Positions 1,634 to 24,159 of a stretch of DNA of 64,000 nucleotides are shown here, one piece after another (position 1 is the first letter of the stretch; the number at the start of each line of letters is the position of its first letter). The stretch is taken from NCBI RefSeq assembly GCF_014200015.1, contig NZ_JACHOT010000005.1, positions 62,001 through 126,000 on the forward strand. Direction: 5' to 3'. The notes below the pieces were generated by a model, which did not search any database, was not told where the DNA came from, and worked only from the letters and a program-made list of their open reading frames with translations. A program made the position numbers and the translations under genes. This DNA comes from Aminobacter niigataensis. GTDB lineage: Bacteria; Pseudomonadota; Alphaproteobacteria; Rhizobiales; Rhizobiaceae.

Positions 1634-2086
1634 CTATGTCAGATCTGGAAAGGCAAAGGCTGCCGCGATGCGGCGGCGCCACTGCGGCACCAGCCGCGTC
1701 AGCGTCACGCCATGATCCTGATAGGCATGCACGAAGCTGTCCGGCTCGACCAGGATTGCCGCGTGCTTGGCCGGAAGATGCGGCCGCCAGCGAAACACGA
1801 TGAGATCGCCGGCAGCCATCACCGAGATCGGCTTCTCCTCGAAATGCCGGCGCAGCCCTTCGAGCAAGCGCTCCTGTTCGGTGGCTTCGGCCCAGTCGGG
1901 CGCATAGGGTCCCGGCGGTTCCAGTTCGCGCCTGTAGACTTCACGCCACACGCCGAGAACCAGGCCGAGGCAATCGCAGGCGACGCCCTTGCGGCTGCCC
2001 TGGTGCCTGTAGGGCGTACCGACCCATTCCAATGCCACCGAAACGACAGATGCTGCTATCCGGTCCCTGCCAGCATTTCCGCTCAT
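1634..2086 (-). CDS. GTA NlpC/P60 peptidase (g14-like)
   Basis: A 150-residue protein of the phage/GTA NlpC/P60 peptidase family, which cleaves peptidoglycan stem peptides so the tail can pass DNA through the recipient wall. The catalytic Cys is C39 in ACDCLGL. The histidine is H108 in AKHAAIL, with a second His at 120 in FVHAYQDHG. The length is that of a single catalytic domain. The start overlaps the stop of the upstream hub gene by 4 bases, and the large tip gene follows after 19 bp. It sits at the g14 position of the GTA order. It carries no signal peptide, as expected for a particle component. Confidence 0.9.
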   Translation of the reverse strand: MSGNAGRDRIAASVVSVALEWVGTPYRHQGSRKGVACDCLGLVLGVWREVYRRELEPPGPYAPDWAEATEQERLLEGLRRHFEEKPISVMAAGDLIVFRWRPHLPAKHAAILVEPDSFVHAYQDHGVTLTRLVPQWRRRIAAAFAFPDLT

Positions 2087-2970
2087 GACACGATCGGCCC
2101 GCCATCGAATTTGCCGCCCTCCGTGACGTAGGCGTAGCCGGCGTCATTGCCAGGCAGATGCGGAAACCCGCGAAAGCTAAGCGCATTGGAGAACTTCGCC
2201 TTGCAGGTCGCGAACGTCTTGTCGCAGCCGGCGCGAACCGAGAACGCATCTCCTGCCGCTGCTGGGGAGCCGGAATGCGACCCCAAGATGAGCGTCACGC
2301 CCAAACCATCCCGACGATGGTCGTCGATCCTTTCGCTTCGGCCGGCTCTTGCCCCGGTAGTCCAGGTCAGCGTGCCATGCCCAAACCATCCCGGCGCAAA
2401 ACCGCTCAATCCCGAAACAGTCAGCATGTCGGGTTCGGCAACCGCCAAAACCGTCCCGCTGCCGGAAAACTGTGGCGGGCTCAGCGCCACACCGCAGCGC
2501 TGGTCGCCGAGCTCAGCGTCGCATGAGCGGCTGACGTAGCGCCCACGCACCTGATCGAGCGCATGCGTGGCGCTCTCCAGTTCGGCGACGAAGCGCTGGT
2601 CGCTGCGGGTAATCCTGCCTACGGTCGCCATCCGCAACAATGCGAATTGCCCCGGCGCCATCCAGTTGACCAGGAAAGTCTCGACGGTCGCGCTGTCATA
2701 GAGCCCCGCCGCAATGTCCTCGCTGCGGATTCGATCCGAACTCAGCGCCCCTTCGACATCGACGGTGTCGACGGCCAGGCCGAGTGAACTGCGTGCTTCG
2801 CTGGCGCTCAACCCGGATTCCGGCTCGAAGGTCGTGCCATCGAATTCGAGCGGACGATCGTGGTCGGTGTAGCCGCTGACAACGCCATCTTTCCTGGTCA
2901 GCCGCCAGCAATGGCATACGCTGGTCACAGCTCGGCCGAGGTGATCGGCCAGTTCCACGGGCATGGTCAC
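2083..2970 (-). CDS. GTA baseplate hub protein (g13-like, DUF2163)
   Basis: A 295-residue DUF2163/phage_BR0599-type protein. The N-terminal half (about 1-160) carries the conserved SGYTDHDRPL and EGALSSDRI phrases; the C-terminal domain follows. Four cysteines, C150, C159, C249 and C256, are spaced as pairs (x8 and x6). Tail-tip hub proteins of this kind, such as lambda gpL, bind an iron-sulfur cluster, so these are the probable ligands here (inference). The protein would sit between the distal tail ring and the tip protein. Its start overlaps the stop of the DUF2460 gene by 4 bases and its stop overlaps the peptidase start by 4 bases, suggesting translational coupling. Confidence 0.9.
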   Translation of the reverse strand: MTMPVELADHLGRAVTSVCHCWRLTRKDGVVSGYTDHDRPLEFDGTTFEPESGLSASEARSSLGLAVDTVDVEGALSSDRIRSEDIAAGLYDSATVETFLVNWMAPGQFALLRMATVGRITRSDQRFVAELESATHALDQVRGRYVSRSCDAELGDQRCGVALSPPQFSGSGTVLAVAEPDMLTVSGLSGFAPGWFGHGTLTWTTGARAGRSERIDDHRRDGLGVTLILGSHSGSPAAAGDAFSVRAGCDKTFATCKAKFSNALSFRGFPHLPGNDAGYAYVTEGGKFDGGPIVS

Positions 2971-3614
2971 AGGCGCACCTCCACCAGAGGGATCGATGGA
3001 ATCTGCCCCGCCTTGAAGGCCGTCAGGCTCAGCGACAAACGCTCGGTATCGAAGCGGACGGGCACATGGAATTCAAAACCCGCCGTGACCAGCGCGCCGG
3101 TGCCCGGGATCGATCCGGACGAAAATACAACATCGCCGGTAGCGCCATCGAACGAGAACGCCGGCGAAACTCGTTCGACGCCTGCGACAGCGACGCGGAG
3201 GCTGGCCAGGACCGGCTTGGCAATCAGGCGTTTGTACGCATCGACGCCGGAGCCATAGGCCTTCACCAGGGCAAAGCGTGTCCTGGTTCCATCCCCCGAA
3301 CCAAGCGGCTGGTCGAGCATGGTGGGCAGGTCCCCCGGCCGGCACGACTTCATGTCGAAGGGATCGCGGAAACGGAAGGCATGCAGCGATCCGCGCCGCG
3401 CCTCGAAAAACGACAGCACGTCGTGCAGATCGTCGAGCGACTTCACGCCGGTGCCGGCGTCATAGTGGTGGCGCGACTGCGAAAAGCGCAGGTTGCGCTT
3501 CTCCCGCCCCGAGGTCAGCGAAACGATCTCGTTGCGCCGCTCCGGCCCGCCCGTCGCGCCAAAGGACACGGCGAGCGGAAAAACCTCGTCATGGAAACTG
3601 CTGAGCTCCGTCAC
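2967..3614 (-). CDS. GTA distal tail protein (g12-like, DUF2460)
   Basis: A 215-residue protein of the TIGR02217/DUF2460 family, the distal tail ring that links tail tube to hub. I chose the GTG at 3614, which gives MTELSSFHDEVFPLAVSFGA, because GAGGGAGAG lies just upstream; upstream sequence in this frame is only shadow of the tape-measure gene. Family phrases visible are NEIVSLTSGREKRNLRFSQS, RHHYDAG and FRFRDPFDMKSC. It begins 10 bp after the tape-measure stop and overlaps the hub gene by 4 bases. Confidence 0.9.
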   Translation of the reverse strand: MTELSSFHDEVFPLAVSFGATGGPERRNEIVSLTSGREKRNLRFSQSRHHYDAGTGVKSLDDLHDVLSFFEARRGSLHAFRFRDPFDMKSCRPGDLPTMLDQPLGSGDGTRTRFALVKAYGSGVDAYKRLIAKPVLASLRVAVAGVERVSPAFSFDGATGDVVFSSGSIPGTGALVTAGFEFHVPVRFDTERLSLSLTAFKAGQIPSIPLVEVRL

Positions 3615-3624
3615 GATCTCTCCC

Positions 3625-4200
3625 TCAGAACGTTCGCGCGCCGCGCGAAACAGCCCGCGCCAGCATGCCGGTGATCTGCGCTTCTGATTTGCGGAACGAT
3701 GCGGCGTCCTGCGCCGTGACATTGAAGACGACATTGACGGCGCCACCGCCGCCGGGCGCCGCGACGCCCAGGCTGCCGTCAGCCCCACGGCGCAGCGGCA
3801 GGATCGCCTCGGCACCAGCTTCGCCCATCAGTCCGATGTTCCTGCCGGCCGGAAAATAGGTTGGCGACGACACCACCCCGCCGGAGGCGAACGGCACGAT
3901 GCTGCCCGTCACCCCACCCTTGGCGAACGGCAAGATGCCGGACAAGCCACCAAGCAGCTTCGAAAATAGCGAGCCCGCCAGCGACTGCAGCGGCGCCAGT
4001 CCTTGCTCCAACGCCATGCCGGCGAGGTTCAGGCCGATGCGCCGCAGGATGTCGTCCAGTTCGCGTCCACTTACCACTGCACTCTTCAAGGCGCCGGTCA
4101 GTTGCGCGCCGAAACTGTCCGACAGCCGCTCCAGCGACTGCAGCGCAGTCTGGAACGGCGCCGTATCTGCGCGGATCGCCACTGTCACTTCCTCTGCCAT
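3625..4200 (-). CDS. GTA tape measure protein (g11-like)
   Basis: A 191-residue tail tape-measure protein, very short compared with phage tape measures (often over 600) but in line with the short tail of GTA particles. The N-terminus MAEEVTVAIRADTAPFQTAL and the glycine-rich centre FAKGGVTGS ... FASGGVVSSP ... GEAGAEAILPL are the standard signature of the C-terminal part of lambda-type tape measures. The start ATG at 4200 lies inside the end of the second chaperone frame. It sets tail length and marks the cluster as a small-particle GTA rather than a large-tailed prophage. Confidence 0.9.
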   Translation of the reverse strand: MAEEVTVAIRADTAPFQTALQSLERLSDSFGAQLTGALKSAVVSGRELDDILRRIGLNLAGMALEQGLAPLQSLAGSLFSKLLGGLSGILPFAKGGVTGSIVPFASGGVVSSPTYFPAGRNIGLMGEAGAEAILPLRRGADGSLGVAAPGGGGAVNVVFNVTAQDAASFRKSEAQITGMLARAVSRGARTF

Positions 4201-4430
4201 GCTTTTTGTCCTTGTCGGGGAACATCGTCATCAGCGCGTCGAGCTGCGCCTTTGTCGGCGCACCGCCGGTACCTGGCGGCAGCATGCTCATCGCTCGCTC
4301 CAGTTCGCGTGGCGTCATCGCCCAGAAGTCCTTCGGCGATAGCCGCAGCAGGCCGAATCCCGTGGCCATCACGCTGTCCCAGGGAAATTCAGCGCCGGTA
4401 CCCGCTGCGGCACCTAAGGGTTTCGGCCAT
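4185..4430 (-). CDS. GTA tail assembly chaperone 2 (g10.1-like, TAC_6) with two frame breaks
   Basis: The stretch encodes FGLLRLSPKDFWAMTPREL and DALMTMFPDKDKK, clear hallmarks of the TIGR02216/Phage_TAC_6 chaperone. It cannot be read from one start to one stop. The ATG at 4430 (MAETL) and the TGA at 4187-4185 are in the same frame, but the conserved middle is one base out of phase with both. The breaks are near the CCC run at 4418-4420 and the A5 run at 4203-4207. The conserved middle is also exactly the -1 frame of the preceding chaperone g10, which ends in the slippery motif A AAC CCT. So it is either a -1 frameshift extension of g10 (as lambda G/GT), a gene with two compensating indels, or a sequencing artefact. 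In the conserved frame no stop occurs before 3779. Confidence 0.6.
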
Positions 4431-4755
4431 CCTCTGCCTTGGGCGCAGCGCCGAAGGTCGTGGTCAGAAGGTCCGCCACGATCGCGGCAAAGCCTGCGAC
4501 GCCGCCTTCGGCACGCATGCCGCCCACCTCGTCGTCGGAAAGCTCATGTCCGGCACCCCGCAAGCCAGCGCCGATGATGCGGATCATGTCGGTTGCCGAC
4601 AGTCGGCCGGACGAAAAGCGTTGCACCAGCGCGGCCAAGTCATCGGCGGCATAGCTCGCCTCGAGCTCGGCCAAGGCGCCCAATGTCAAGCACAGCCGGT
4701 GGTTCTTGCCGTCCAGTTCGGCGGCAATCTCGCCGCGCCGCCTGTTCGCCGTCAT
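4414..4755 (-). CDS. GTA tail assembly chaperone 1 (g10-like, TAC_11)
   Basis: A 113-residue protein of the GTA-gp10/Phage_TAC_11 family, which helps the major tail protein polymerise around the tape measure and is not expected in the finished particle. The N-terminus RGEIAAELDGKNHRLCLTLG and the central LAELEASYAADDLAALVQRF are typical. It overlaps the major tail protein stop by 4 bases (4752-4755). The last codons are CGA AAC CCT TAG, so the X XXY YYZ heptamer A AAC CCT abuts the stop and could permit -1 slippage into the second chaperone frame. Confidence 0.88.
   Translation of the reverse strand: MTANRRRGEIAAELDGKNHRLCLTLGALAELEASYAADDLAALVQRFSSGRLSATDMIRIIGAGLRGAGHELSDDEVGGMRAEGGVAGFAAIVADLLTTTFGAAPKAEDGRNP
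4417..4423 (-). promoter_or_regulatory. Candidate -1 ribosomal frameshift heptamer A AAC CCT
   Basis: On the minus strand the seven bases before the g10 stop read A AAC CCT in the zero frame, the X XXY YYZ form of -1 slippery sites, followed at once by TAG. Slippage would bypass the stop and enter the frame encoding the TAC_6 domain. Paired chaperones joined by -1 frameshifting are well known in siphophages (lambda G/GT). The heptamer is not among the strongest known, so function is inferred from its position. Confidence 0.4.
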
Positions 4756-5168
4756 GGCGCCACCGTGAAGCCGACGACGCCGGCGGACTCCAGCGCCACC
4801 TCGAACGTCACCTCGCCGTCGTGGTTGCCGGTGTATTCCAGCGCGGTGATCTGGAACGGCCCGTCGACGACGCCGAAATCAGGCACGGCCAGTTGCCACC
4901 TGACAATCTCGCCGCCAAAGAAGCATGTGCGGATCCTGGCGTCGGACTGCTGGTCCTTGAAGATGCCGGATCCGCTCACCGCCGCTCGCTGCACGCCGCT
5001 CCCGGCCAGGAGTTCGCGCCAGCGCCCGGCCGACTCCGCATCGGTGATGTCGACCGTCTCGCTGTTGAAGGCGATGCGCTTGGAGCGCAGCCCTGCAACC
5101 GTGACAAAGCTGCCAAGACCGTTGGTGTCGATCTTGAGCAGAAGGTCCTTACCCTTCTGTGCGACCAT
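4752..5168 (-). CDS. GTA major tail protein (g9-like)
   Basis: A 138-residue protein of the TP901-1-like major tail protein family, which stacks as rings to form the tail tube. Characteristic phrases are MVAQKGKDLLLKIDTNGLGS, IAFNSETVDITDAESAGRWRE and LEYTGNHDGEVTFEVALESAG. It is preceded by the tail terminator gene with a 52 bp gap (5169-5220) and overlaps the first chaperone gene by 4 bases. Length and order match the R. capsulatus cluster. Confidence 0.9.
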   Translation of the reverse strand: MVAQKGKDLLLKIDTNGLGSFVTVAGLRSKRIAFNSETVDITDAESAGRWRELLAGSGVQRAAVSGSGIFKDQQSDARIRTCFFGGEIVRWQLAVPDFGVVDGPFQITALEYTGNHDGEVTFEVALESAGVVGFTVAP

Positions 5169-5220
5169 TCGTTGGTCTCCTGAAATGTCTTGAGAAAGAT
5201 GCTGGCGGCCAAGCCGCCCG

Positions 5221-5634
5221 TCAGGCAGCCACCGGCTCGGTCACAGCGCGAAAGCGCAACAGACCATGCTGCACGGATAGCCGGTCGTCGAAGCGTGTTT
5301 CGGAGAATTCGAGCCGCATGCTGACCAGATGCTGCGTGCCCAAGTTGAGCGTCGCATCATCGAGCAGACCACGCACCGCTTCCATGATTTCGAGCGCCTC
5401 GCGCTTGCCCTGCGATTTCGACCAGACATGGACCGAAAACAGCTGTTCGGTGCCGCTTTCGGTATCCGTGCTCCAGTCGTAGACGCTCGTCCGCCCGAAA
5501 GTCAGGTAGGGAAAGTCGACATTGGCGGGCGCCGGGTCATGGATCTTCGGGCCGCCCAGGAGTGCCACCAGCGCGGCATTGCCGCGGAGCGCCGCAAATA
5601 CCGCCTTCTGCAACTCAGCGGCCGGGGCGGTCAT
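5221..5634 (-). CDS. GTA tail terminator (g8-like, DUF3168)
   Basis: A DUF3168 protein of 137 residues starting MTAPAAELQKAVFAALRGNA at the ATG at 5634. The longer upstream frame is shadow of the small gene before it, with which it overlaps by 20 bases. DUF3168 proteins cap the tail tube and join it to the head. Diagnostic segments are VALLGGPKIHDPAP, FPYLTFGRTSVYDWSTDTES and the LNLGTQHLVSMRLEFSETRF strand. It is followed by the major tail protein gene. Confidence 0.88.
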   Translation of the reverse strand: MTAPAAELQKAVFAALRGNAALVALLGGPKIHDPAPANVDFPYLTFGRTSVYDWSTDTESGTEQLFSVHVWSKSQGKREALEIMEAVRGLLDDATLNLGTQHLVSMRLEFSETRFDDRLSVQHGLLRFRAVTEPVAA

Positions 5635-5806
5635 CGCTTCGCTCCCTCTTGCTTCTCGCCCCCGCCCGCGAAGACGGCACGTCGGCCGACTTTTCGGCGG
5701 GCACGACGTCACGGTAGCCCTGTTCGGCGCTCTCCGCCAGTTCATGCGCCTTCCAGCGCAGCGCGCGCTTCAGCCCATCCAGCGTCAGCTTCATCGTCAC
5801 GTTCAT
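5615..5806 (-). CDS. Small protein between GTA head-closure and tail-terminator genes
   Basis: A 63-residue frame from the ATG at 5806, beginning MNVTMKLTLDGLKRALRWKA and ending in a basic Arg/Ser/Asp tail. It overlaps the preceding head-closure gene by 4 bases and the next gene by 20 bases, exactly as translationally coupled genes do, which supports it as real. The amphipathic N-terminal half resembles the start of HK97-gp10-type tail-completion proteins but is much shorter; I cannot assign a family. It has no counterpart that I know in the R. capsulatus cluster. Confidence 0.6.
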   Translation of the reverse strand: MNVTMKLTLDGLKRALRWKAHELAESAEQGYRDVVPAEKSADVPSSRAGARSKRERSDDRPGR

Positions 5807-6138
5807 GCACCTTGCTCCCTTGTGCGGCAAACGAGGTAACGCTGCGTTTCGTCGGGGTCGTGCACGGTAATGATGTCCAGTACGCGCTGGCCCCGGCGCA
5901 GACGCATGCCGCTTTTCAATCCTGCCCGCCACCTCATGGACACACGATGCGTCGCCGTCTCCAGCGATTGGTCGGCGCCGAACGAGCTGTGCGTCGAAAC
6001 CGGCTCGACCCGCGCAAACAACGTTGCCAGCTCGACCCAGTTTTCGGTATGGCCACCGAAGCTGTCCGGGGTCGTCACGCATTGTTCGAGTGCGAATTCG
6101 CTGCGCAGCGCGCCGGGGTCGATGAAGCTCGCGCGCAT
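5803..6138 (-). CDS. GTA head closure / stopper (g7-like)
   Basis: A 111-residue phage head closure (SPP1 gp16-like) protein: MRASFIDPGALRSEFALEQC, the FGGHTENWVELATLFARVEP strand, and the MRLRRGQRVLDIITVHDPDE segment seen across the family. It plugs the connector after DNA packaging. Its start overlaps the stop of the connector gene by one base and its end overlaps the small protein gene by 4 bases. Confidence 0.88.
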   Translation of the reverse strand: MRASFIDPGALRSEFALEQCVTTPDSFGGHTENWVELATLFARVEPVSTHSSFGADQSLETATHRVSMRWRAGLKSGMRLRRGQRVLDIITVHDPDETQRYLVCRTREQGA

Positions 6139-6707
6139 CAGAGCCTCCGGGCTCGATAGCCGGAAAGCAGCCGGTCATAGCCGCCGGGATAGGACGCAGG
6201 CTGATCGTCGGGGCCGAAGCTGGCGCGGAACTCGTACCAATGCGCGACGAGCAGAAGCATCGCCCGCTTGAGCAGGTCAGGCACGTCGGTCCCCGCCTCG
6301 CCGAAGCCGGCGCGAAAGTCGATTTCGACACCGTTCATCACGCGCAGCCGCTGCGGCGCACGCTCGAAGTGGATGCGCGCCGGCCGCGACAGCGTGTCCA
6401 GCTGGTAGTCGCCGGGATTGATAATCGAGGCCTCGCCCTCGCTGCCGAAGGTCGTCACCGAAATCACCTGCCGCACCGGGTGCCGCATCAGCATCACGAA
6501 ATTGTCGGCCGGCCAGCGGTCGAACACCAGGCGCCAGGTCTGGTCGATCAGCGCGGTGCCCGTCGTACGCTCGACATCCTCTCGCGCGGCGCGGATCAGG
6601 CCACTGATCAGCGCGTCCTCGCTGGTATGCGACATGCGCAGATGCGCCTTGGCGTCGACCAGCGTCACGGGCTCGACCGCCGGCGTGCCGGTTCTGATCA
6701 GGGTCAT
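6138..6707 (-). CDS. GTA head-tail connector / adaptor (g6-like)
   Basis: A 189-residue connector protein of the phage gp6-like/TIGR02215 class: VTLVDAKAHLRMSHTSEDAL at the N-terminus, then IRAAREDVERTTGTALIDQT and WRLVFDRWPADNFVML. It forms the ring below the portal. It is separated from the capsid gene upstream by 105 bp holding a GC-rich hairpin (6737-6766), the largest internal gap of the cluster. Confidence 0.88.
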   Translation of the reverse strand: MTLIRTGTPAVEPVTLVDAKAHLRMSHTSEDALISGLIRAAREDVERTTGTALIDQTWRLVFDRWPADNFVMLMRHPVRQVISVTTFGSEGEASIINPGDYQLDTLSRPARIHFERAPQRLRVMNGVEIDFRAGFGEAGTDVPDLLKRAMLLLVAHWYEFRASFGPDDQPASYPGGYDRLLSGYRARRL

Positions 6708-6812: not shown

Positions 6813-8069
6813 TTACGCGGTGCCGTATTTGAGCAGCTTGATCGCGCTGAAGTCCTGGACACCGCCGCCGACGCGCTTGGTCGTGTAGAACAGCACGTAG
6901 GGCTTGGCGGAATAGGGATCGCGCAGCACGCGCACACCGGTCCGGTCGACGACCAGATAGCCGCGCCCGAAATCGCCGAAGGCGATCGGCGTCGCGTTAG
7001 CGGCCGCATCCGGCATGTCCTCGGCCTCGACAAGCGGGAAGCCCATCAGCATGGCGCGCTGGCCAGGGGCCGAAGGCGGCTGCCAGAGATAGTTGCCGTC
7101 GGCATCCTTCAGCTTGCGAATCGACGCCTGGGTCTTGCGGTTCATCACCCAGTTGGCATTCTGGCGATAGCCGGCCTTCAGCGTATAGACGGTATCGATC
7201 AGGATATCCGAGGGGCTCGATGCCGGCAGCGCGCCTGATACACCGGTCACCAAATAGCCGATATCGCCCCAGGCCCAACTCGCCTCGGCCACCTTGTTGT
7301 AGTCGAGGAAGCCCTTGGGCTTGTTGACGCCGTTGCCATTGACGAAGGCCGTGCCTTCCTGCTCGGCGAAGGCCGTCTCCACCTCGGACGCGATCCACTG
7401 GTCGAGATCGACGACACTGTCTTCAAGCAGCGAGGCCGTCGCCGCCGGCATGGCGTAGAGCTCCATCGTCGGGAACTGCAGCTCGGCCAGGACAGGCGTC
7501 GCCGTCTGCGGCCGTGTAGCCGTCTCGGCCACCCAGCCCACGGCCGGTCCCGTGGTGGTGAACGGCTTTTTCAGCACAGCGGCCGAAACCTGCCTTACAG
7601 AGGCTATCGAGCGGAGCGGCGACAATGTCGACAGCCGGCGCCCGATCTCGGTTTCGGTCTCGTTCGGCACGAGATAGCCGCCGTCCTGGCCGGAGCCATA
7701 GGACATCGCCTTGGTGTCGAGGGCCCGCAACTGCCGGTCGTCGCCGTTGCGCATATAGGCGTCGAACGCATCCTTGTGCTCGCTCGGCATCGACCGGCCG
7801 TCGCGCCCAAGGGTCGGACGCAAGCGCTTCAGCGACAGGCTGTCGAGCGTGCGTTTCTGCTCGTCGAGTGCGCGCGAGATGCGGTCGACCTTGTCGGAGG
7901 TCACCACGTCGGCGCCGAGCTTGCCTTCCAGCTGCGCCAGGCGTTCGTCATTGCTGTCCTTGAAGGTCTCGAAGGTGGTCATGAACTCGCCGAAGGCATC
8001 CTTCAGGTCGAGGTTGTCGCCTGCTGCCGCCTTGATTTCGGGGGCGCGCGACGCGTGGGTCTCATTCAT
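6813..8069 (-). CDS. GTA major capsid protein (g5-like, HK97 fold)
   Basis: A 418-residue HK97-type major capsid protein. I place the start at the ATG at 8069 (MNETHASRAPEIKAAAGDNL) because AAGGAAGC precedes it and the ATGA overlaps the protease stop; the longer frame reads back into the protease gene. Residues 1-110 form a coiled-coil scaffold-like delta domain (EAFMTTFETFKDSNDERLAQ-type heptads) to be removed by the protease. The body has the family features YLVPNETETEIGRRLSTLSP, FVNGNGVNKPKGFLDY and IAFGDFGRGYLVVDRTGVRV. Confidence 0.92.
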   Translation of the reverse strand: MNETHASRAPEIKAAAGDNLDLKDAFGEFMTTFETFKDSNDERLAQLEGKLGADVVTSDKVDRISRALDEQKRTLDSLSLKRLRPTLGRDGRSMPSEHKDAFDAYMRNGDDRQLRALDTKAMSYGSGQDGGYLVPNETETEIGRRLSTLSPLRSIASVRQVSAAVLKKPFTTTGPAVGWVAETATRPQTATPVLAELQFPTMELYAMPAATASLLEDSVVDLDQWIASEVETAFAEQEGTAFVNGNGVNKPKGFLDYNKVAEASWAWGDIGYLVTGVSGALPASSPSDILIDTVYTLKAGYRQNANWVMNRKTQASIRKLKDADGNYLWQPPSAPGQRAMLMGFPLVEAEDMPDAAANATPIAFGDFGRGYLVVDRTGVRVLRDPYSAKPYVLFYTTKRVGGGVQDFSAIKLLKYGTA

Positions 8070-8764
8070 ACGCTGCTTCCTTTTTGCTTGATCATGCGCG
8101 TGGCCTGGCGAATGCGTTCTGCGAGGCCGCTCTCTGATCCCCATGCGGCGTCCCGCTTGCGCACGAGGCTGGCGAAGCCCTCGGCGATGACCGCCCGGGC
8201 GTCGCTCCTGGTCAGCCCCGCATCCCGCGTGAGCCAGCCTTCGAATTGTCGGGTGGTGGGCAGCCGTCCGCGGCCCTTGACCGTGTCGATGCGCGCTTCG
8301 GGCAGCATCGGAAAGGTGACGATCGAGATCTCCCAGAGATCCGCCTCGAGGATATGGCGGACACCGCTCGCTGGTTCCTTCCTCGCCTTCACGGCGCGAA
8401 AACCGATCGACAGGCCGTCGAGCGCGCCCCCGCGCAGCAGATTGTGCACGTCGCGGGCCCGCGCCACGTCCTTGGCCAGCCGGCCGCGAACGAACAGGCC
8501 GCGACTGTCCTCCTTCAGCTCCGTCCAGGTGCCGATCGGCTGGTTGGGATCATGCTGAAACAGCATGCGGATGCCCGCCGCACCGCGTGTCCGAAGCGAC
8601 TTGGCGAAGGCTCCGCGCTCGACCACGTCCTTGCCGAGATCAACCCGCCCGAACAGGCTGGCATAGCCCGAGAAAGTGCCGTCGATGGCGACTTCGTCGA
8701 GCACCAGGTCGACGAACTTCCGTTCGCCTTGCCGCATCGCTGCCTCATGCATCATCAGCGCCAT
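8066..8764 (-). CDS. GTA prohead protease (g4-like, HK97 family)
   Basis: An HK97-family prohead serine protease (peptidase U35) that trims the capsid delta domain during head maturation. I start at the ATG at 8764 (MALMMHEAAMRQ); the 18 codons upstream overlap the g3.5 coding end. Family signatures are IDGTFSGYASLFGRVDLGKD, IRMLFQHDPNQPIGTW with the catalytic His, and GALDGLSIGFRAVKARKE with the catalytic Ser. It overlaps the capsid gene by 4 bases and g3.5 by 20 bases. Confidence 0.9.
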   Translation of the reverse strand: MALMMHEAAMRQGERKFVDLVLDEVAIDGTFSGYASLFGRVDLGKDVVERGAFAKSLRTRGAAGIRMLFQHDPNQPIGTWTELKEDSRGLFVRGRLAKDVARARDVHNLLRGGALDGLSIGFRAVKARKEPASGVRHILEADLWEISIVTFPMLPEARIDTVKGRGRLPTTRQFEGWLTRDAGLTRSDARAVIAEGFASLVRKRDAAWGSESGLAERIRQATRMIKQKGSSV

Positions 8765-9101
8765 TCCTCTTCCGCCTGTCGTCGATCCATCGGCTGACGC
8801 GGTTGCCTTCAAAGGCACGCATGACGAAGCCGAGCGCCCACCAGGCGCACAGGCTTGCCGCCGCGGCCCCCATCATCGTCATCTCGGTCGGGCTGATCAG
8901 TTCTTCGATGCCGAGCTCGGCGGCGATCTTCAGGCCGACCGTGCCACCGAACACCAGGCCGCAGACCACCCCCACGGCAAAGCGCACGGCGGCCTCGCGC
9001 CTCCCGTGCGGCAGGATGTAGGCGAGCGAGATCGCCGAGCCGGCAATCGCGCCCCCGCCCTTGGCCAGCCACAGCCAGCCGGGATTGGACATGTCGGTCA
9101 T
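8745..9101 (-). CDS. GTA g3.5-like small membrane protein (DUF6107)
   Basis: A 118-residue protein occupying the g3.5 position between portal and protease. Hydrophobic segments lie at roughly 8-28 (WLWLAKGGGAIAGSAISLAY), 38-62 and 74-95, so it is probably a membrane protein, ending in a basic tail RWIDDRRKRNGADD. Proteins annotated DUF6107 in rhizobial GTA clusters look like this; function is unknown, perhaps a holin-like or assembly role (speculation). Confidence 0.75.
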   Translation of the reverse strand: MTDMSNPGWLWLAKGGGAIAGSAISLAYILPHGRREAAVRFAVGVVCGLVFGGTVGLKIAAELGIEELISPTEMTMMGAAAASLCAWWALGFVMRAFEGNRVSRWIDDRRKRNGADDA

Positions 9102-9128: not shown

Positions 9129-10304
9129 TCAGCCGCGCGGCGGATAACCCACGGCCTCGCGCTTTTCGTCGTCGCTGAGGAAATCGGCCGCTTCGACCCG
9201 GGTCCACAGGGCATCACGCTCGCCAGCGAGCCCCTCGACCTGGTCGGCGTCGTACCAGAGCCGGAGGCCGCCACCGAAAGCCGGCGCCAGCCAGGCGGAA
9301 AGTTCCTTGGCCGTCCGCGCCAACAGCGGCAGCACGGTCAGGCGATAGAAGGCGCGATTGGCCTCCTGGTAGTTCGCGTATGTGTTGTCACCGGGAATGC
9401 CGAGCAGCATCGGCGGCACCCCGAAGGCGAGCGCGATGTCGCGGCTCGCCGAATGCTTTGCCTCGATGAAATCCATGTCCTTCGGCGTCAGGCCCATCGC
9501 CTTCCAGTCGAGCCCGCCCTCGAGCAGCAGCGGCCGGCCGGCGCGGGTCGCTCCCGAATAGCCTTCTTCCAGCTCGGCCTTCAGCCGGTCGAACTGTTCG
9601 TCACTCAGGTTGCCGCCGTCCTTGGGCGCATAAACCAGCGCTCCAGATGGACGCGCCGAATTGTCGAGCAACGCCTTGTTCCAGCGCCCCGCCGCATTGT
9701 GCGTGTCGAGGGCGATCAGCGCCGCTTCGAGCGGCGGGAAGCCGTAATGATCGTCGAGCGGATGAAACAGCGTCAGGTGTGCCGCCCCGCCCTGCTCCGA
9801 CAAGCCAAGGGATATGCGCCGGCGCGCACCACCTTCGCGATAGTCGAGTGCTATCGGCCACCCATTGGCGTCACTCGCCACCGCAACCCGGTCGGGCCGT
9901 AGCAGGTGCAGTTCGCGCGCACCGCCGCCTGCCGCCGCCAGCTCGACATAGGCATTGCCCGAAAGCAGCAAGTGGCCATACAGCGCTTCCATGAAGCTGC
10001 CACCGGCCTGCCGCTCGTTCGGCCGCTCGCACAGTTCGAGCAAGGCATGCCCGCCCAGTTCGGTTGCGCCTTCATAGAGCAGCCAGGGTATTGCCGACGC
10101 CGTCTCCGAGATCAGGCGCACCGAGCGATGCACGATCGGATTGCGCATGAAACCTTCGCGCGCCAGCCCTGCATAGTCGCGCCGTGTCCAGCGCGCCTCG
10201 CCCTGGGCGTGGAGAGCGACGAAGCCAGTCGGTCCGCCGCTCTTGCGTTCGGGCACGGCGCTACCCCTCCCGGTCCGCCAGAACCTGGGCCAATTCACAG
10301 CCAT
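9129..10304 (-). CDS. GTA portal protein (g3-like)
   Basis: A 391-residue HK97-family portal protein, the dodecameric ring at the packaging vertex. The core signatures are RNPIVHRSVRLISETASAIP, FMEALYGHLLLSGNAYVELA, ARPSGALVYAPKDGGNLSDE and FGVPPMLLGIPGDNTYANYQ. Length is typical. It begins 12 bp after the terminase stop and ends 27 bp before g3.5. Confidence 0.92.
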   Translation of the reverse strand: MAVNWPRFWRTGRGSAVPERKSGGPTGFVALHAQGEARWTRRDYAGLAREGFMRNPIVHRSVRLISETASAIPWLLYEGATELGGHALLELCERPNERQAGGSFMEALYGHLLLSGNAYVELAAAGGGARELHLLRPDRVAVASDANGWPIALDYREGGARRRISLGLSEQGGAAHLTLFHPLDDHYGFPPLEAALIALDTHNAAGRWNKALLDNSARPSGALVYAPKDGGNLSDEQFDRLKAELEEGYSGATRAGRPLLLEGGLDWKAMGLTPKDMDFIEAKHSASRDIALAFGVPPMLLGIPGDNTYANYQEANRAFYRLTVLPLLARTAKELSAWLAPAFGGGLRLWYDADQVEGLAGERDALWTRVEAADFLSDDEKREAVGYPPRG

Positions 10305-10316
10305 ATCGTTTCCTGT

Positions 10317-11660
10317 TCAGAGAAAATCGCGGATTCGTGGTTCGGTCGACCAGTCCGGCATCAACTCGCCGATCGCCCAGACCAGCGCATCGACGCGGTC
10401 GGGAGAGCGACCATTGGACAGCCCATTCGGGCCGAAGTCGCACATTTCGTCTTCAAGCGCCGGAAATCGTCCAGCATGCAAAACCTTGCGTTGCGGGTAG
10501 AGTGCCGCGATCGGCTCGGCGCGCAACCATTTAGACCGCTTGGCACGCACCGCCTTTACCGGCACCGCCGGATCGACCGTTCGGATCACCGCCGTCACCA
10601 TCTCGCCGCCCTGGTTGGTCTCTGCGATGATGCAGTCAGCCTCCAGGCGGTGAAACAGCCTTACGGCCGTGCCTGCCCAGTCCTGCGGCTTTGCCGCCTG
10701 GACCGTCGCGTCGGCGAGTACCACCGCCCTGCCCGCGCCATCCAGTCCGACCGCAACAATGCCGCAGGCGTCCGATGTCTTGCGCGAACTCGCCGGCGGA
10801 TCGACCGCCACAACGATACGACGCAAGTCGGCTGCTGCCGCGACCAACGCCGCTTCGAGCATATCGCGCGACCACAATGCATCTGCGCGGTCCTCGATCA
10901 GCTCGCCGTCAAGCTCCTGCCGGCCGAGCACACTGCCGCCGTAGCGGCTGCGGATCGTGCTCAGGAAGCCTGGCGCCAGGTTGGCGCTGTTTTCATCCGA
11001 GCGCATCCGCGTCACCAGCACGGCCGGGTCGGCCAACAGGCGCTTCAGCAGCGGTACGGGCCGTGGTGTCGTGGTGATGATCTGGCGCGGCTTGTCGCCA
11101 AGCCTGAGCCCGAACTGCAGCATGTCGAAACACGCTTCGGCATGCTTCCACTTCGCCAGTTCATCGCACCAGGCAGCTTGAAACTGCGGCCCACGCAGGC
11201 TGTCGGGGTCCTCCGAGGAGAAAATCTGTGCCACGGCGCCGCTGTCCCAGACCAGCCTCTTGCGGCTCGGCTCGAAACGCGGCCTGTCATGACGCGAAAT
11301 CGTTGCGATGCCAGACGGTCCTTCGATCATCACCTCTCGCACGTCGGCAAGGGTCTCTCCGACCAAGGCTATCGGCGAATGCCGCCTGGATGCGAAAGGC
11401 GAGAACCCACGCACCATGGAATTGACCCACTCGGCCCCCACCCGGGTCTTGCCGGCGCCACGCCCGCCCACCACCAGCCACGTCGCCGGCTCGGCTTCGA
11501 GCAGATATTGCTGGATTCGCGCCGACCGATACCACTCTCTTGCGATCAGCCTACCTTGGCGCCAGTTCAGATTCGTTTGCGCAAAGCACTCTTGCATAGT
11601 CTCTGGCAAGTTCGACGATGCGTTGGTCGATCCTTGCGAGCACATCTGCCATTTCTGCAT
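10317..11660 (-). CDS. GTA large terminase (g2-like)
   Basis: An ATPase/nuclease that packages DNA, 447 residues from the ATG at 11660. Walker A is GGRGAGKT at about residues 65-72. The C-terminal nuclease domain shows VVAVDPPASSRKTSDACGIV, IIAETNQGGEMV and DRVDALVWAIGELM. The start is uncertain: the ATG at 11660 has GGAG a few bases upstream but makes the gene overlap g1 by 110 bases, while an in-frame ATG at 11597 would cut the overlap to 47. Both give a full ATPase domain. Confidence 0.9.
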   Translation of the reverse strand: MQKWQMCSQGSTNASSNLPETMQECFAQTNLNWRQGRLIAREWYRSARIQQYLLEAEPATWLVVGGRGAGKTRVGAEWVNSMVRGFSPFASRRHSPIALVGETLADVREVMIEGPSGIATISRHDRPRFEPSRKRLVWDSGAVAQIFSSEDPDSLRGPQFQAAWCDELAKWKHAEACFDMLQFGLRLGDKPRQIITTTPRPVPLLKRLLADPAVLVTRMRSDENSANLAPGFLSTIRSRYGGSVLGRQELDGELIEDRADALWSRDMLEAALVAAAADLRRIVVAVDPPASSRKTSDACGIVAVGLDGAGRAVVLADATVQAAKPQDWAGTAVRLFHRLEADCIIAETNQGGEMVTAVIRTVDPAVPVKAVRAKRSKWLRAEPIAALYPQRKVLHAGRFPALEDEMCDFGPNGLSNGRSPDRVDALVWAIGELMPDWSTEPRIRDFL

Positions 11661-12018
11661 CTCGCTCCGTCTGGCTCACTTTCGCTGCCTCGCCTCCCCG
11701 CATCAATTCGTTGATCTTCTCGACCGTCCTGATGATCGAGCCGACCATGTCGACCTGCGCCTTGTCGAAACCGCCTTCGTTTTCCGGCTGCAAGGCTTCT
11801 GCCTGCGCGATCAGCGAATCTGCCAACCGGGCCAACCGGTCGGCGAAGTCGTCGGCGGCAATCCAGCCATCTCGCGCGGCACGTCTTTCTATCTTGGCCA
11901 CGGCATAGCCGCTTGCCACGGACAACAGCTCGATGTCCGGCGTCGCGCCCTCATGGAGCGCACGCAGCGCCCGCCATCGCTCGTCAGCTCTCGCGACCAA
12001 CGAAACCTCCAGCATCAC
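11551..12018 (-). CDS. GTA g1-like protein, probable small terminase
   Basis: A 155-residue protein beginning GTG ATG (MMLEVSLVARADERWRALRA). Residues 20-55 (LHEGATPDIELLSVASGYAV, AKIERRAARDGWIA) form a helix-turn-helix of the kind found in small terminases, followed by long helices rich in Glu and Arg. It is the first gene behind the promoter at 12080-12108, the position of g1 in R. capsulatus. There the homologue is a small terminase subunit that lost sequence specificity, consistent with random DNA packaging. The assignment rests on position and fold-like features. Confidence 0.75.
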   Translation of the reverse strand: MMLEVSLVARADERWRALRALHEGATPDIELLSVASGYAVAKIERRAARDGWIAADDFADRLARLADSLIAQAEALQPENEGGFDKAQVDMVGSIIRTVEKINELMRGGEAAKVSQTERDAEMADVLARIDQRIVELARDYARVLCANESELAPR

Positions 12019-12079: not shown

Positions 12080-12108
12080 ACACTATCAAAGCACCGTCAC
12101 GGTGTCAA
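12080..12108 (-). promoter_or_regulatory. Probable promoter of the GTA cluster
   Basis: On the minus strand TTGACA (12108-12103) and TAGTGT (12085-12080) are separated by 17 bases, a good sigma-70-type promoter ending about 60 bases before the g1 start. It is the only strong promoter-like sequence I see ahead of the cluster. Confidence 0.55.
12092..12104. promoter_or_regulatory. Inverted repeat (candidate operator) in the GTA promoter spacer
   Basis: CACCGT-C-ACGGTG is a perfect 6+1+6 palindrome lying in the spacer between -35 and -10 and touching the -35 hexamer. A second imperfect repeat, TTTGACGATAG ... CTATCAAA (12065-12075 and 12083-12090), overlaps the -10 and start region. Both are suited to a repressor or activator. 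The regulator is not identified. Confidence 0.5.
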
Positions 12109-12283
12109 GAATATATTCCTATCGAGGTGCATTTTCCTGTTCCGCAGGCTGCTTGCCGCCCCCCTCTTGTCGCGGCGTCGAAAATCGGGGACAAGTCAGC
12201 CGTGGGCCGAGGGACGCGTGCCCTGAATTCGCCAGCACCCGTATTTAGGTATAAGCTGCAGTCACGTGCCGGACCCGTCTCGA

Positions 12284-21093: not shown

Positions 21094-21206
21094 CTCCGAC
21101 TTCAGGGCCTACGCCAGGCCCCACCGCGATACGCCCGCCTCTGGCATCTGCGGTGCATTTCTTTTTTCGTGACGGGCAGCAGTGCCGGCACTATATCGAA
21201 GGCACC

Positions 21207-21635
21207 ATGACCACCTCGATCGACACCATCCGCGACGACTTCTCCTTCCTTGACGAGTGGGAGGATCGCTATCGCTATGTCATCGAGTTGGGTGAAGCAC
21301 TTCCGCCTTTCCCCGAGAGCGCACAGACCGACACCAACAAGGTGCAGGGCTGCGTCAGCCAGGTCTGGCTTGTGACCCACAAGGGCGACGGTGCCGACCC
21401 CGCCATCCGCTTCGAAGGCTACTCGGACGCGCATATCGTGCGCGGGCTCGTCGCCATCATGCTTGCCCTGTTTTCAGGTCATCGCGCCAGCGAGATCATG
21501 GCGACCGACGCGGAAGCCACATTGAAGGCACTCGGCCTCAACGAGCACCTGTCGCCGCAACGCGCCAATGGCTTGCGCTCGATGGTCAAGCGCATCAAGC
21601 GCGACGCCGAGGCTGCCCTCCACCAGGTCGCCTGA
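21207..21635 (+). CDS. sufE: SufE cysteine desulfuration protein
   Basis: A 142-residue SufE, the sulfur acceptor that takes persulfide from the SufS desulfurase and passes it to the Fe-S scaffold. The acceptor cysteine is in NKVQGCVSQVWLV. Other family segments are TIRDDFSFLDEWEDRYRYVI, ALPPFPESAQTDTNKV and LNEHLSPQRANGLRSMV. I chose the ATG at 21207, with AAGG shortly before it. It stands alone, not with a suf operon, and converges on the DUF6456 gene with a 7-base gap. Confidence 0.92.
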   Translation: MTTSIDTIRDDFSFLDEWEDRYRYVIELGEALPPFPESAQTDTNKVQGCVSQVWLVTHKGDGADPAIRFEGYSDAHIVRGLVAIMLALFSGHRASEIMATDAEATLKALGLNEHLSPQRANGLRSMVKRIKRDAEAALHQVA

Positions 21636-21642
21636 GTTCCGT

Positions 21643-22443
21643 TCAGCCCATTCGCGGGCGATAATCCTCGGTCCCCCAATGCAGGACCTTGCGACCGGCA
21701 ACGGAACCGGCGCGAGGATTGTAATGTCTGGCCAGCACGCCAAGTGCCGACTTGAGCATGACCTTGGCCGACCGCACCGGCCAGCCGCGCTCGGCTTCGA
21801 CAAGTTCCAGCCCCTTCAGGAAGCAGCAGACGTCAATCAGGACGCCGGATAGCTCCGGCCCGACCGCATCGATCGCCCTGTCGACCCGCTGCCGCGCGGC
21901 GAGCGCCGCATCCGTCAGTTCCGCCAGGCCGCCGCCGGCACTGCGCTTGCCGGAAGAGACGCTCGCCACCCAGTTGGCGCCCATGCGCGGCATGATCTGG
22001 CCGCGCGTGTAGTCGGCACGCAGCCGTTCGCCAGCGACGAACTCGCTGTTGTTCAGGAACGGCTTGCCGGCCTTGGTCTTGCGTCGGGCGAGTTGGCCGA
22101 GTGGCGACTCCGAAAGGTTGATCAGAGCGGCATGTTGCCCGGCCGCGGTATCGACCGTCGCCGTGTCCAGTTCGCGGTGCTGGCTCTGGAAAGGATCGAC
22201 TGGGCCCTCCTCTCGCCGTGCGGCCGCTTGCCCTTCCGGCGTAAGCCGCATCGCCCGGCCAACGCAAACGACAAGCCCTTGCCGGGACAATGCCGCAAGC
22301 ACCTCGGCACCGACGGCGATCCTGTCGCTCCTGTCGTTCTCAAGCAGCATCTTGCCGGCCGTTGCGGCCGGCTCGCATTCTGCGGCCCCCTTGGCCAGCA
22401 GCGTGAGCACGCGCTTCTGTGCCTTTTCGTCAGGGGTGCTCAT
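21643..22443 (-). CDS. DUF6456 protein, candidate GafZ-like GTA activator
   Basis: A 266-residue protein starting at the ATG at 22443 (MSTPDEKAQKRVLTLLAKGA); sequence upstream in frame is shadow of the preceding gene. Residues 1-75 resemble a winged helix (VLAALSRQGLVVCVGRAMRL, TPEGQAAARREE). The C-terminal half is DUF6456: SPLGQLARRKTKAGKPFLNN, GERLRADYTRGQIMPRMGAN, WPVRSAKVMLKSALGVLARH, ending HWGTEDYRPRMG. It starts one base after the stop of a DnaA-like HTH gene. In Caulobacter the two-gene gafYZ unit (one protein, GafA, in Rhodobacter) turns on the GTA cluster, and this pair is laid out the same way. The functional assignment is inference. Confidence 0.8.
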   Translation of the reverse strand: MSTPDEKAQKRVLTLLAKGAAECEPAATAGKMLLENDRSDRIAVGAEVLAALSRQGLVVCVGRAMRLTPEGQAAARREEGPVDPFQSQHRELDTATVDTAAGQHAALINLSESPLGQLARRKTKAGKPFLNNSEFVAGERLRADYTRGQIMPRMGANWVASVSSGKRSAGGGLAELTDAALAARQRVDRAIDAVGPELSGVLIDVCCFLKGLELVEAERGWPVRSAKVMLKSALGVLARHYNPRAGSVAGRKVLHWGTEDYRPRMG

Positions 22444-22444
22444 G

Positions 22445-22867
22445 TCAACCCTCCAGCCTGTCGCGAAACGCAGCGATCGCCACCCGCTCCGCCAGCGCCA
22501 CGATCCGGTCAAACTCCGCATCGTCGCGCAGGTCCTCCACGGTATGGCAGGCATAAAGCACTGTGGTCCGGTCGCGCCCAAAGCCACGGCCGACCTCGCG
22601 CATGCTGAGACGAAACACGACATGGGCAACATACATGGCAATCTGGCGGAGGCGGCTGATGTCGTTGCCAGTCCGGCCAATTCGACGAATCTCCCTGCTT
22701 GGCACGCCGAACAACGCCGCCATGAGGTCGATCATCGCATCGCAACGCTCCACCACCTGGTCACGACGCCGGTCGGCGACAAGTTCAAGAACGGAACGCT
22801 CGTCCCTGGCGGCGGCCTCGCGCGCCTCCTTCTGCCGTTTGACCAATGTTGCCGACGTGGATCCCAC
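22445..22867 (-). CDS. DnaA-domain-IV-like HTH protein, candidate GafY-like GTA activator
   Basis: 140 residues from the GTG at 22867, chosen because AGGGGGAAGAG precedes it and a good promoter sits just upstream; the frame extends to 22969 but through that promoter. The C-terminal 50 residues (SRLRQIAMYVAHVVFRLSMR, EVGRGFGRDRTTVLYACHTV) match the DNA-binding domain IV of DnaA, including the GRDxTTV helix. There is no AAA+ domain, so it is not DnaA. Such stand-alone proteins next to DUF6456 genes are common in Rhizobiales. The N-terminus is charged and helical. Likely a transcription factor acting with its neighbour. Confidence 0.8.
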   Translation of the reverse strand: MGSTSATLVKRQKEAREAAARDERSVLELVADRRRDQVVERCDAMIDLMAALFGVPSREIRRIGRTGNDISRLRQIAMYVAHVVFRLSMREVGRGFGRDRTTVLYACHTVEDLRDDAEFDRIVALAERVAIAAFRDRLEG

Positions 22868-22891
22868 CGAACTCTTCCCCCTTTGTGGATA

Positions 22892-22930
22892 GGAATAAGT
22901 TCTTATACCGGGCACGTCACAGGGTGTGAA
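22892..22930 (-). promoter_or_regulatory. Promoter and operator of the HTH/DUF6456 pair
   Basis: On the minus strand TTCACA (22930-22925), a 17-base spacer and TATAAG (22907-22902) form a near-consensus promoter. An inverted repeat GGAATAAG-TT-CTTATACC (22892-22909, one mismatch per arm) overlaps the -10 and the expected transcription start, which is where a repressor would bind. The mRNA leader to the GTG at 22867 would be about 27 bases with a strong ribosome site. Confidence 0.6.
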
Positions 22931-23083
22931 CAAAAAAGAACGATGAGGCAGCGGAAGAAACTTCAACACGCTGTAATCATTGTTCTATTTATTCCGCTCC
23001 AGTGAATTCTTGGCGCAGTTTCTCCCCACCCTGCAAGATGGCAGCATCATCGCACGATCACAGTCACATCAGGCAGGATCGCG

Positions 23084-23459: not shown

Positions 23460-23888
23460 TTATTTACCCACCTTGCGCTTGCGGCCCAGGCCCATCTTCT
23501 TGGCCAGTTGCGAGCGAGCTGCCGCATAGTTGGGCGCCACCATCGGATAGCTGGCGTCAAGGCCCCACTTCTCGCGGTACTGATCGGGCGTCATGTTGTA
23601 GTGGGTCATCAGGTGACGCTTGAGCGATTTGAACTTCTTGCCGTCTTCCAGGCAGATGATGTAGTCGTCATGCACCGAACGCTTCGGGTTGACGGCCGGC
23701 TTCTGCTTGTCGGCGGGTGGTGTGTCGGCGACGTTACCGACGCGGCCAAGGGCTGCGTGAACGTCCGCGATCAGCCCCGGAAGTTCTCCTACCGGGACCG
23801 GATTGTTGCTGACATAAGCGGCCACCACGTCGGCGGTCAGTTCGATCAGCGTTTCGCTATTTGCTGCAGGCGTTTCGGAAGTATCCAT
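23460..23888 (-). CDS. mucR: MucR/Ros family zinc-finger regulator
   Basis: A 142-residue global regulator of the Ros/MucR family; I start at the ATG at 23888 ([20 protein letters not shown]). The N-terminal half mediates oligomerisation ([15 protein letters not shown]). The C-terminal single zinc finger reads [20 protein letters not shown], with Cys-x2-Asp in place of Cys-x2-Cys and the two His of HLMTHY, the usual MucR variant. [13 protein letters not shown] follows, and the protein ends basic. MucR binds AT-rich promoters and controls exopolysaccharide, motility and its own gene. The 271 bases upstream (23889-24159) are AT-rich and free of genes, as expected for autoregulation. Confidence 0.9.
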
Positions 23889-24159
23889 ATGCTTCAGGCC
23901 CCAATGTGACTGGTTGTTTTTTTGCCCGATATTGCGACCGGGGTGCGGCGCGATCTTGTATCGCAATTTGCCATTACGAGTCGCGTTCCATCACTTTAAT
24001 GAGCCTGTAGCCATAACAAGTCAATTCACTATTCTTTGCAACTCCAAGAACAATGCATTCATCACTTCTCTAACAAATGAGCCTTTTTGACAGGGCAATG
24101 TCATCGCACGAGATCAAGTTACACAACGCTGAATGTTCTCTCCGGGGTCATTGTCGGCA

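What the first reader, a model, noticed from the sequence alone, without database searches (positions are those of the whole stretch)
21643..22930. Candidate GafY/GafZ-type GTA master activator pair with its own operator
A stand-alone DnaA-domain-IV-like HTH protein is followed after one base by a DUF6456 protein. In Caulobacter, GafY and GafZ, and in Rhodobacter the single protein GafA, activate GTA genes. The two-gene layout and domain types here fit, and a GTA cluster lies only 10 kb away. The pair has a TTCACA-17-TATAAG promoter whose -10 lies inside the repeat GGAATAAG-TT-CTTATACC, as expected for silencing by a repressor. This would place switch and machine in one locus.
Basis: partly seen in the sequence, partly recalled or inferred. 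Interest (0 to 1): 0.75.

Follow-up and report, generated by a model that had tools for sequence, protein, structure and literature searches.

The report
Double-locked switch for gene-transfer particles
The two genes are a known type of on-switch for domesticated virus-like particles that carry bacterial DNA between cells, and the DNA around them suggests that in this bacterial family one repressor holds back both the switch and the particle genes, a wiring that differs from the studied species and can be tested.

Summary
A stand-alone DnaA-domain-IV protein (22445-22867, minus) is followed after one base by a DUF6456 protein (21643-22443); an RcGTA-like cluster starts about 9.5 kb away. Both match Caulobacter GafY and GafZ in profile comparisons. 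The layout mucR-gafY-gafZ-sufE is already published for Hyphomicrobiales (PMC9638019), so the pair itself is known.

The promoter claim is partly right. The conserved element is not the 18-base dyad but a site like that of the Caulobacter repressor RogA (GGAA-N4-TTCC), over the -10. The same element abuts the -35 of the GTA structural promoter. Both sites (up to 1 mismatch) occur in 40 of 45 family genomes that could be scored; four Caulobacter GTA promoters lack it. The genome has a RogA orthologue (47-50% identity). Family RogA keeps the LexA-type Ser and Lys that Caulobacter RogA has lost, and a like site lies upstream of rogA in 27 of 30 genomes. Many relatives carry a LexA box over the gafYZ -35; here its spacing is 6, not 7.

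Reading: a GafYZ switch with RogA locking activator and structural promoters, a new variant of a known kind. Binding and expression are untested.

The parts
22445..22867 (-). gafY-like gene, 140 aa from GTG (start inferred), DnaA domain IV HTH
   Evidence: PF08299 E 3.5e-15; hhalign to Caulobacter GafY Prob 99.0, E 6.2e-18
21643..22443 (-). gafZ-like gene, 266 aa, DUF6456
   Evidence: PF20057 E 6.7e-47; hhalign to Caulobacter GafZ Prob 99.6, E 1.2e-24
22902..22907 (-). -10 TATAAG of the gafYZ promoter
   Evidence: read; conserved in family promoters
22925..22930 (-). -35 TTCACA of the gafYZ promoter, 17 bases from the -10
   Evidence: read
22890..22904 (+). RogA-type operator TAGGAATAAGTTCTT overlapping the -10
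   Evidence: exact site; GGAA-N4-TTCC with up to 1 mismatch in 58 of 63 family gafYZ upstream regions, shuffles 12.6
22928..22941 (-). LexA-like direct repeat GTTC-N6-GTTC over the -35 (N7 in relatives)
12107..12121 (-). RogA-type operator TAGGAATATATTCTT at the GTA structural promoter
   Evidence: exact site; at the -35 in 43 of 46 recognised family GTA promoters with up to 1 mismatch
12103..12108 (-). -35 TTGACA of the GTA promoter
   Evidence: read; TTGA invariant by selection in 46 promoters, 5th base C in 45
12092..12104 (-). palindrome CACCGTGACGGTG between -35 and -10, candidate GafZ-binding element
   Evidence: at least 5 of 6 arm pairs in 23 of 46 family promoters, 0-2 at shifted registers; same position as the Caulobacter ZBE (PMC11150451)
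12080..12085 (-). -10 TAGTGT of the GTA promoter, 17 bases from the -35
   Evidence: read
11551..12018 (-). first ORF of the GTA cluster (g1 position), 155 aa
   Evidence: ORF; no PHROGs match
10317..11660 (-). GTA large terminase
   Evidence: phrog_979 E 8e-34
9129..10304 (-). GTA portal
   Evidence: phrog_12 E 4e-62
8066..8818 (-). GTA head maturation protease
   Evidence: phrog_80 E 2e-57
6813..8144 (-). GTA major capsid protein
   Evidence: phrog_10 E 3e-82
1634..6707 (-). further GTA genes: head-tail adaptor, tail terminator, tail and hydrolase-like genes; the cluster runs on past the window start
21153..21635 (+). sufE, synteny marker downstream of gafZ
   Evidence: PF02657 E 4e-46
23460..23966 (-). 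mucR/ros, synteny marker upstream of gafY
   Evidence: PF05443 E 1.4e-51

Best explanation
The pair is the GafY/GafZ activator of the RcGTA-like cluster beside it. Its promoter is shut by the genome's RogA orthologue (outside the window, contig C7) sitting on the -10. The same repressor sits at the -35 of the GTA structural promoter, so activator and structural genes are both locked. On release, GafY helps RNA polymerase start, and GafZ loads at the palindrome between -35 and -10 and carries polymerase through the cluster. Shown here: homology, synteny, linkage and conservation of the sites. Inferred from Caulobacter: repression, activation, anti-termination. Also inferred: that RogA is the binder at both promoters. 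In many relatives LexA probably adds a second, damage-sensitive lock on gafYZ.
For: Profiles match Caulobacter GafY and GafZ. gafY-like gene upstream of gafZ in 61 of 62 fetched relatives. gafZ and GTA terminase in 60 of the 67 family genomes that have either. RogA-type site in 58 of 63 gafYZ upstream regions, shuffles 12.6, and at the -35 in 43 of 46 recognised GTA promoters, shuffles 0.34; both in 40 of 45. Over 81 whole genomes, 21 of 26 exact sites lie at these two promoters; reversed pattern 5 hits in all. Caulobacter gafYZ promoters, where RogA binding is published (PMC9632790), carry TAGGAATATCTTCCT in 3 of 3. RogA orthologue with nearly the same HTH; a like site upstream of rogA in 27 of 30 genomes, shuffles 0.16. 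G017, the one genome with gafZ and terminase but no strong RogA, has neither site within 1 mismatch.
Against: No binding, expression or particle data. RogA is also strong in genomes where neither gafZ nor terminase was found (9 genomes), so it has other targets. The rogA site differs by one base from the gafYZ consensus. Other XRE repressors bind the Caulobacter gafYZ promoter (PMC10688885, PMC13236601, passages), so another binder is possible. In Caulobacter, RogA ChIP peaks were only at gafYZ and CCNA_02002 (PMC9632790). 11 of 57 fetched GTA upstream stretches had no recognised promoter of this form, some because the contig ends. The near-consensus -35 raises the question how far GafY is needed. 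The 30 RogA loci are the best-scoring ones.
Confidence: 0.65

Rival explanations
1. One-layer control as in Caulobacter: RogA represses only gafYZ. The like site at the GTA promoter is bound by an activator or by another XRE protein, or is a relic, and GTA output follows GafYZ alone.
For: [quoted passage not shown]
Against: The element at the GTA promoter is the same motif as at gafYZ and upstream of rogA, fixed at the -35 in 43 of 46 recognised promoters; Caulobacter GTA promoters have no such motif (4 of 4); G017 lacks strong RogA and both sites.
Confidence: 0.25
2. The operator belongs to LexA or is only promoter sequence: gafYZ is mainly an SOS gene and the GGAA-N4-TTCC element is a by-product of the -10 and -35.
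For: GTTC-N7-GTTC with up to 1 mismatch in 26 of 63 gafYZ promoters, 20 of them at one fixed place.
Against: The GGAA half lies outside the -10 and the -35 and is conserved; the window's own repeat has the wrong spacing; LexA-like repeats at GTA promoters are not clearly above other spacings (12 of 46 against 1-6).
Confidence: 0.06
3. The pair is not a GTA switch but a DnaA-like replication or general regulator that happens to lie near the GTA.
For: Caulobacter GafY was first named HdaB because its overexpression affected replication (told in PMC9632790, passages).
Against: The same paper ascribes that effect to the GTA. Here gafZ and terminase co-occur in 60 of 67 genomes with either, are linked, and share an operator.
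Confidence: 0.04

Closest known systems
Caulobacter crescentus GafY/GafZ with repressor RogA (CCNA_01111, CCNA_01112, CCNA_00080)
   Same: Two adjacent genes with the same domains; profile matches to both; RogA orthologue with 47-50% identity; RogA-type site in the gafYZ promoter.
   Different: Here the site is also at the GTA promoter, next to a near-consensus -35 (Caulobacter: degenerate -35 AATCAT, no site); RogA keeps Ser and Lys lost in Caulobacter; relatives have a LexA box; the GTA lies about 10 kb away.
Rhodobacter capsulatus GafA (rcc01865)
   Same: By published accounts the same two parts, DnaA-like N-terminus and DUF6456 C-terminus (PMC9638019, PMC11150451, passages).
   Different: One fused protein there, two genes here.
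Split gafA loci of Hyphomicrobiales described by Sherlock and Fogg 2022
   Same: DnaA-like gene before a DUF6456 gene, sufE downstream, mucR upstream (PMC9638019, passages).
   Different: In the passages seen, operators, RogA and LexA sites at these loci are not described.
Lambda-like prophage switches (CI/LexA logic)
   Same: A LexA/CI-like protein with Ser and Lys kept, like sites at its own gene and at the genes it would silence.
   Different: Cleavage and induction are not shown; the repressor gene is not linked to the particle genes.

Membership tests
GafY/GafZ activator pair | Stand-alone DnaA domain IV HTH protein | tested here: met
   PF08299 E 3.5e-15; hhalign to Caulobacter GafY Prob 99.0
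GafY/GafZ activator pair | DUF6456 protein directly downstream | tested here: met
   PF20057 E 6.7e-47, one base apart; hhalign to Caulobacter GafZ Prob 99.6
GafY/GafZ activator pair | Occurs with an RcGTA-like cluster | tested here: met
   In this window; in 60 of 67 family genomes with either gafZ or terminase
GafY/GafZ activator pair | GafZ-binding palindrome between -35 and -10 of the GTA promoter | tested here: inconclusive
   A palindrome lies there and is conserved, but its sequence differs from the Caulobacter element and binding is unknown
GafY/GafZ activator pair | Activates GTA transcription; GafZ anti-terminates | not testable with these tools
   needs expression experiments
RogA repressor | HTH plus S24 domain, about 213 aa, clear orthologue of Caulobacter RogA | tested here: met
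   216 aa, PF00717 E 1e-24; best match in each of 3 Caulobacter genomes at 49-50% by search, E 1e-56 or better
RogA repressor | GGAA-N4-TTCC site in the gafYZ core promoter | tested here: met
   GGAA-TAAG-TTCT, one mismatch; Caulobacter paper reports two repeats, here one was found
RogA repressor | Lacks the residues for LexA-type self-cleavage | tested here: not met
   Ser in 29 of 30 and Lys in 30 of 30 family RogA; so orthologue, but not like Caulobacter RogA in this point
RogA repressor | Binds and represses gafYZ | not testable with these tools
   needs binding and deletion experiments
GafA (fused activator) | Both domains in one protein | tested here: not met
   Two ORFs
GafA (fused activator) | Sequence or profile similarity to R. 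capsulatus GafA | not tested
   no GafA sequence was fetched; similarity is as published (PMC9638019)
LexA (SOS) target | GTTC-N7-GTTC in the promoter | tested here: not met
   Window: N6; relatives: N7 with up to 1 mismatch in 26 of 63

The most novel reading that the evidence does not exclude
In this bacterial family a possibly self-cleaving RogA directly locks the activator genes, the GTA structural promoter and its own gene, with a LexA box on gafYZ in many members, so that GTA production is a DNA-damage-inducible, prophage-like switch. The same operator also heads some orphan genes for toxin-like proteins that share a leader motif with GTA head proteins and could be cargo of the particle.
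Probability: 0.3. Interest if true: 0.8.

Novelty: new variant of a known kind. Interest (0 to 1): 0.58.

Why it matters
What triggers GTA production in wild alphaproteobacteria is still largely open. If one LexA-like repressor holds both activator and structural genes across this family, the trigger becomes directly testable: remove rogA, or damage DNA, and look for packaged DNA. It would also show how one switch was rewired between Caulobacter and its relatives.

Tried and rejected
The 18-base dyad as operator: rejected, its outer right arm is weakly conserved and no second exact copy exists. GafZ fold: single-sequence prediction with pLDDT 39.8, useless, not searched further. PDB sequence search: GafZ no match up to E 1; GafY matches DnaA domain IV. 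GafZ in phages: one record of 50,697, whose neighbours look like a bacterial chromosome. Search for GafY and IHF elements by k-mers: nothing clear upstream of the GTA promoter. LexA box at GTA promoters: 12 of 46 against 1-6 at other spacings, not convincing. A third exact operator in the genome looked like background (5 off-target sites in 81 genomes against 5 for the reversed control), but its gene family carries the site in 6 of 15 orphan loci (shuffles 0.13); these 6 include the locus whose site led me there and its same-genus counterpart, and the one relative with a recognised toxin domain (L236) lacks the site.

Rows dropped: two weak second DUF6456 hits and secondary terminase hits (one search kept one per genome); G053 and G070 were not used for gafYZ upstream regions (63 of 65 used); 5 of 62 terminase genomes (G003, G007, G032, G034, G044) were not fetched; G046 and G074 were left out of the promoter alignment, leaving 46 of 48. 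Of 22 loci, 15 were counted: five lie in GTA clusters and two are pieces of a gene already counted. RogA residues and upstream sites were counted on the 30 best-scoring loci only. Of 18 class-level loci, upstream flanks were fetched for 15, and three downstream stretches are cut by contig ends. Sites were assigned by comparing coordinates by eye.

Full report
What is there. On the minus strand, a 140-aa protein with a DnaA domain IV HTH (PF08299, E 3.5e-15) is followed after one base by a 266-aa protein with DUF6456 (PF20057, E 6.7e-47). Upstream lies a MucR/Ros regulator, downstream sufE. DUF6456 was found once in the genome. From 12018 downwards on the same strand lies an RcGTA-like cluster: terminase, portal, protease, capsid, adaptor, tail terminator and tail genes. 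Between the two lie other genes, such as a penicillin-binding protein.

Identity. Caulobacter genomes were reached by scanning a genome collection for the published GafZ element and -10 of the Caulobacter GTA promoter (element from PMC11150451, passages). DUF6456 was then found once in each of three of them. Alignments of the window's proteins with relatives match those of Caulobacter: GafY Prob 99.0, E 6.2e-18 over 77 columns; GafZ Prob 99.6, E 1.2e-24 over 135 columns. In 61 of 62 fetched relatives a gafY-like gene lies upstream of gafZ; L027 is the exception. The same layout with sufE and mucR is published for Hyphomicrobiales (PMC9638019, passages), a split gafA in Agrobacterium is noted in PMC6363796 (passages), and gafA homologues were reported in 196 of 208 alphaproteobacterial genomes examined in PMC9765227 (passages). 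The pair is therefore a new member of a known kind; its activity was not tested.

Linkage. In 81 genomes (own plus 80 of its family), gafZ was found in 65, the GTA terminase in 62, both in 60. In 51 of these 60 the two share a contig; in 45 the terminase lies downstream of gafZ in the same direction within 30 kb (9.3-25 kb). In 153 genomes across the class, own included, DUF6456 was found in 29. For 18 strong loci stretches of up to 20 kb were fetched (15 of them on both sides); tblastn with the window's terminase hit in 3, one of these a partial hit at the edge of the stretch. Distant terminases could be missed. Closeness of switch and machine is thus typical of this family and seems rarer outside.

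The operator. In Caulobacter, RogA binds the gafYZ core promoter, which holds two GGAA-N4-TTCC repeats (PMC9632790, passages). The window has GGAA-TAAG-TTCT over the -10. Three of three Caulobacter gafYZ promoters read TAGGAATATCTTCCT; family promoters read TAGGAA-N4-TTCTTATA in the best-fitting 39 of 63. GGAA-N4-TTCC with up to 1 mismatch was found in 58 of 63 gafYZ upstream regions of 360 bases, against 12.6 (at most 18) in shuffles.

A second copy at the GTA promoter. The own GTA promoter reads TAGGAATATATTCTTGACACCGTGACGGTGCTTTGATAGTGT: operator, -35, palindrome, -10. Of 57 fetched family GTA upstream stretches, 46 show a promoter of this form; the operator with up to 1 mismatch abuts the -35 in 43 of these (0.34 expected, at most 2 in shuffles). 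Of 45 genomes with gafYZ and a recognised GTA promoter, 40 have both sites; each of the five others has one site at 2 mismatches. Over 81 whole genomes, exact TAGGAATANNTTCTT gave 26 places: 17 at gafYZ, 4 at GTA promoters, 5 elsewhere; the reversed control gave 5 in all. Two genomes outside the family have a like site there with 1 and 2 mismatches in 10 (G177, G224). Four of four Caulobacter GTA promoters have no GGA-N6-TCC in the stretch examined.

The repressor. Three S24-domain proteins were found in the genome. One, 216 aa on contig C7, is the best match of RogA type: it matches one protein in each of three Caulobacter genomes at 49-50% identity, E 1e-56 or better (47-49%), and RogA there is 213 aa (PMC9632790). 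The HTH is nearly the same (AGLDSTAFNKSKR against AGLDPTSFNRSKR). Caulobacter RogA lacks residues for self-cleavage (PMC9632790): the alignment shows Ala, Asp or Val for Ser and Arg for Lys in the three genomes. Among the 30 best-scoring family proteins Ser is kept in 29 (Thr in one) and Lys in 30. Cleavage is thus possible but unproven. A site with up to 1 mismatch to AGGAA-N4-TTCCT lies upstream of rogA in 27 of 30 (0.16 in shuffles), as expected for self-control. RogA is strong in 75 of 81 genomes, nine of which had neither gafZ nor terminase, so it has other work. One genome, G017, has gafZ and terminase but no strong RogA; it also has neither site within 1 mismatch. This is a single case.

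LexA. The Caulobacter SOS box is GTTC-N7-GTTC (table in PMC9578287, passage). This repeat with up to 1 mismatch occurs in 26 of 63 family gafYZ promoters, 16 exact, 20 at one fixed place over the -35; spacings 3-6 and 8-12 give 3-8, shuffles 3.3. The window has the half-sites with 6 bases between; G048 of the same genus has 7. Here the box may be weakened, or the run of T misread.

How it most likely works. RogA covers the gafYZ -10 and sits at the GTA -35, so neither activator nor structural genes are made. On loss of RogA, GafYZ are made, GafY helps recruit polymerase, and GafZ loads at the palindrome and carries polymerase through the cluster, as reported for Caulobacter (PMC11150451, passages). 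Conservation of sites and homology are shown here; binding, repression, activation and anti-termination are inferred.

Novelty. The genes and layout are known. In the open-access library searched, the listings, abstracts and passages that I saw report no RogA-type site at a GTA structural promoter and no LexA box at gafYZ of this order. Subscription papers and most preprints are not covered, and I read passages, not whole papers. The wiring is a new variant.

Noticed in passing
own genome C2:435176-436270 (L206, L232); relatives L233, L234, L247, L248, L250: The third exact operator of the genome lies just upstream of a 349-aa orphan protein with a leader motif (NPAQPRVPSGNHDGGQWT). Relatives share the leader but have different C-terminal parts; 6 of 15 orphan loci have the operator near the start of the frame. 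One relative without the operator (L236) has a CdiA-CT RNase A toxin domain.
   Followed up: partly
L238, L239, L242, L244, L245 (GTA clusters of G060, G065, G038, G030, G006): The same leader motif occurs inside GTA clusters of relatives, in L238 in one frame with a prohead protease (PF04586). This suggests that toxin-like parts may ride on or in GTA heads.
   Followed up: partly
GTA promoters of the family, 35-51 bases after the start of the -35 (window about 12073-12057): A block like AYMGTCGGAAAAGTGYG just after the -10 is strongly conserved in 46 promoters; no explanation found.
   Followed up: no
phage record MW462191.1 (L023): Filed as a phage contig, but it carries the gafYZ-sufE layout among genes of bacterial type; it looks like a piece of a bacterial chromosome.
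   Followed up: partly
window 23084-23440, plus strand: 118-aa ORF between gafY and mucR with no Pfam match and only a weak NCBIfam sigma-factor hit far below the cut-off; function unknown.
   Followed up: no
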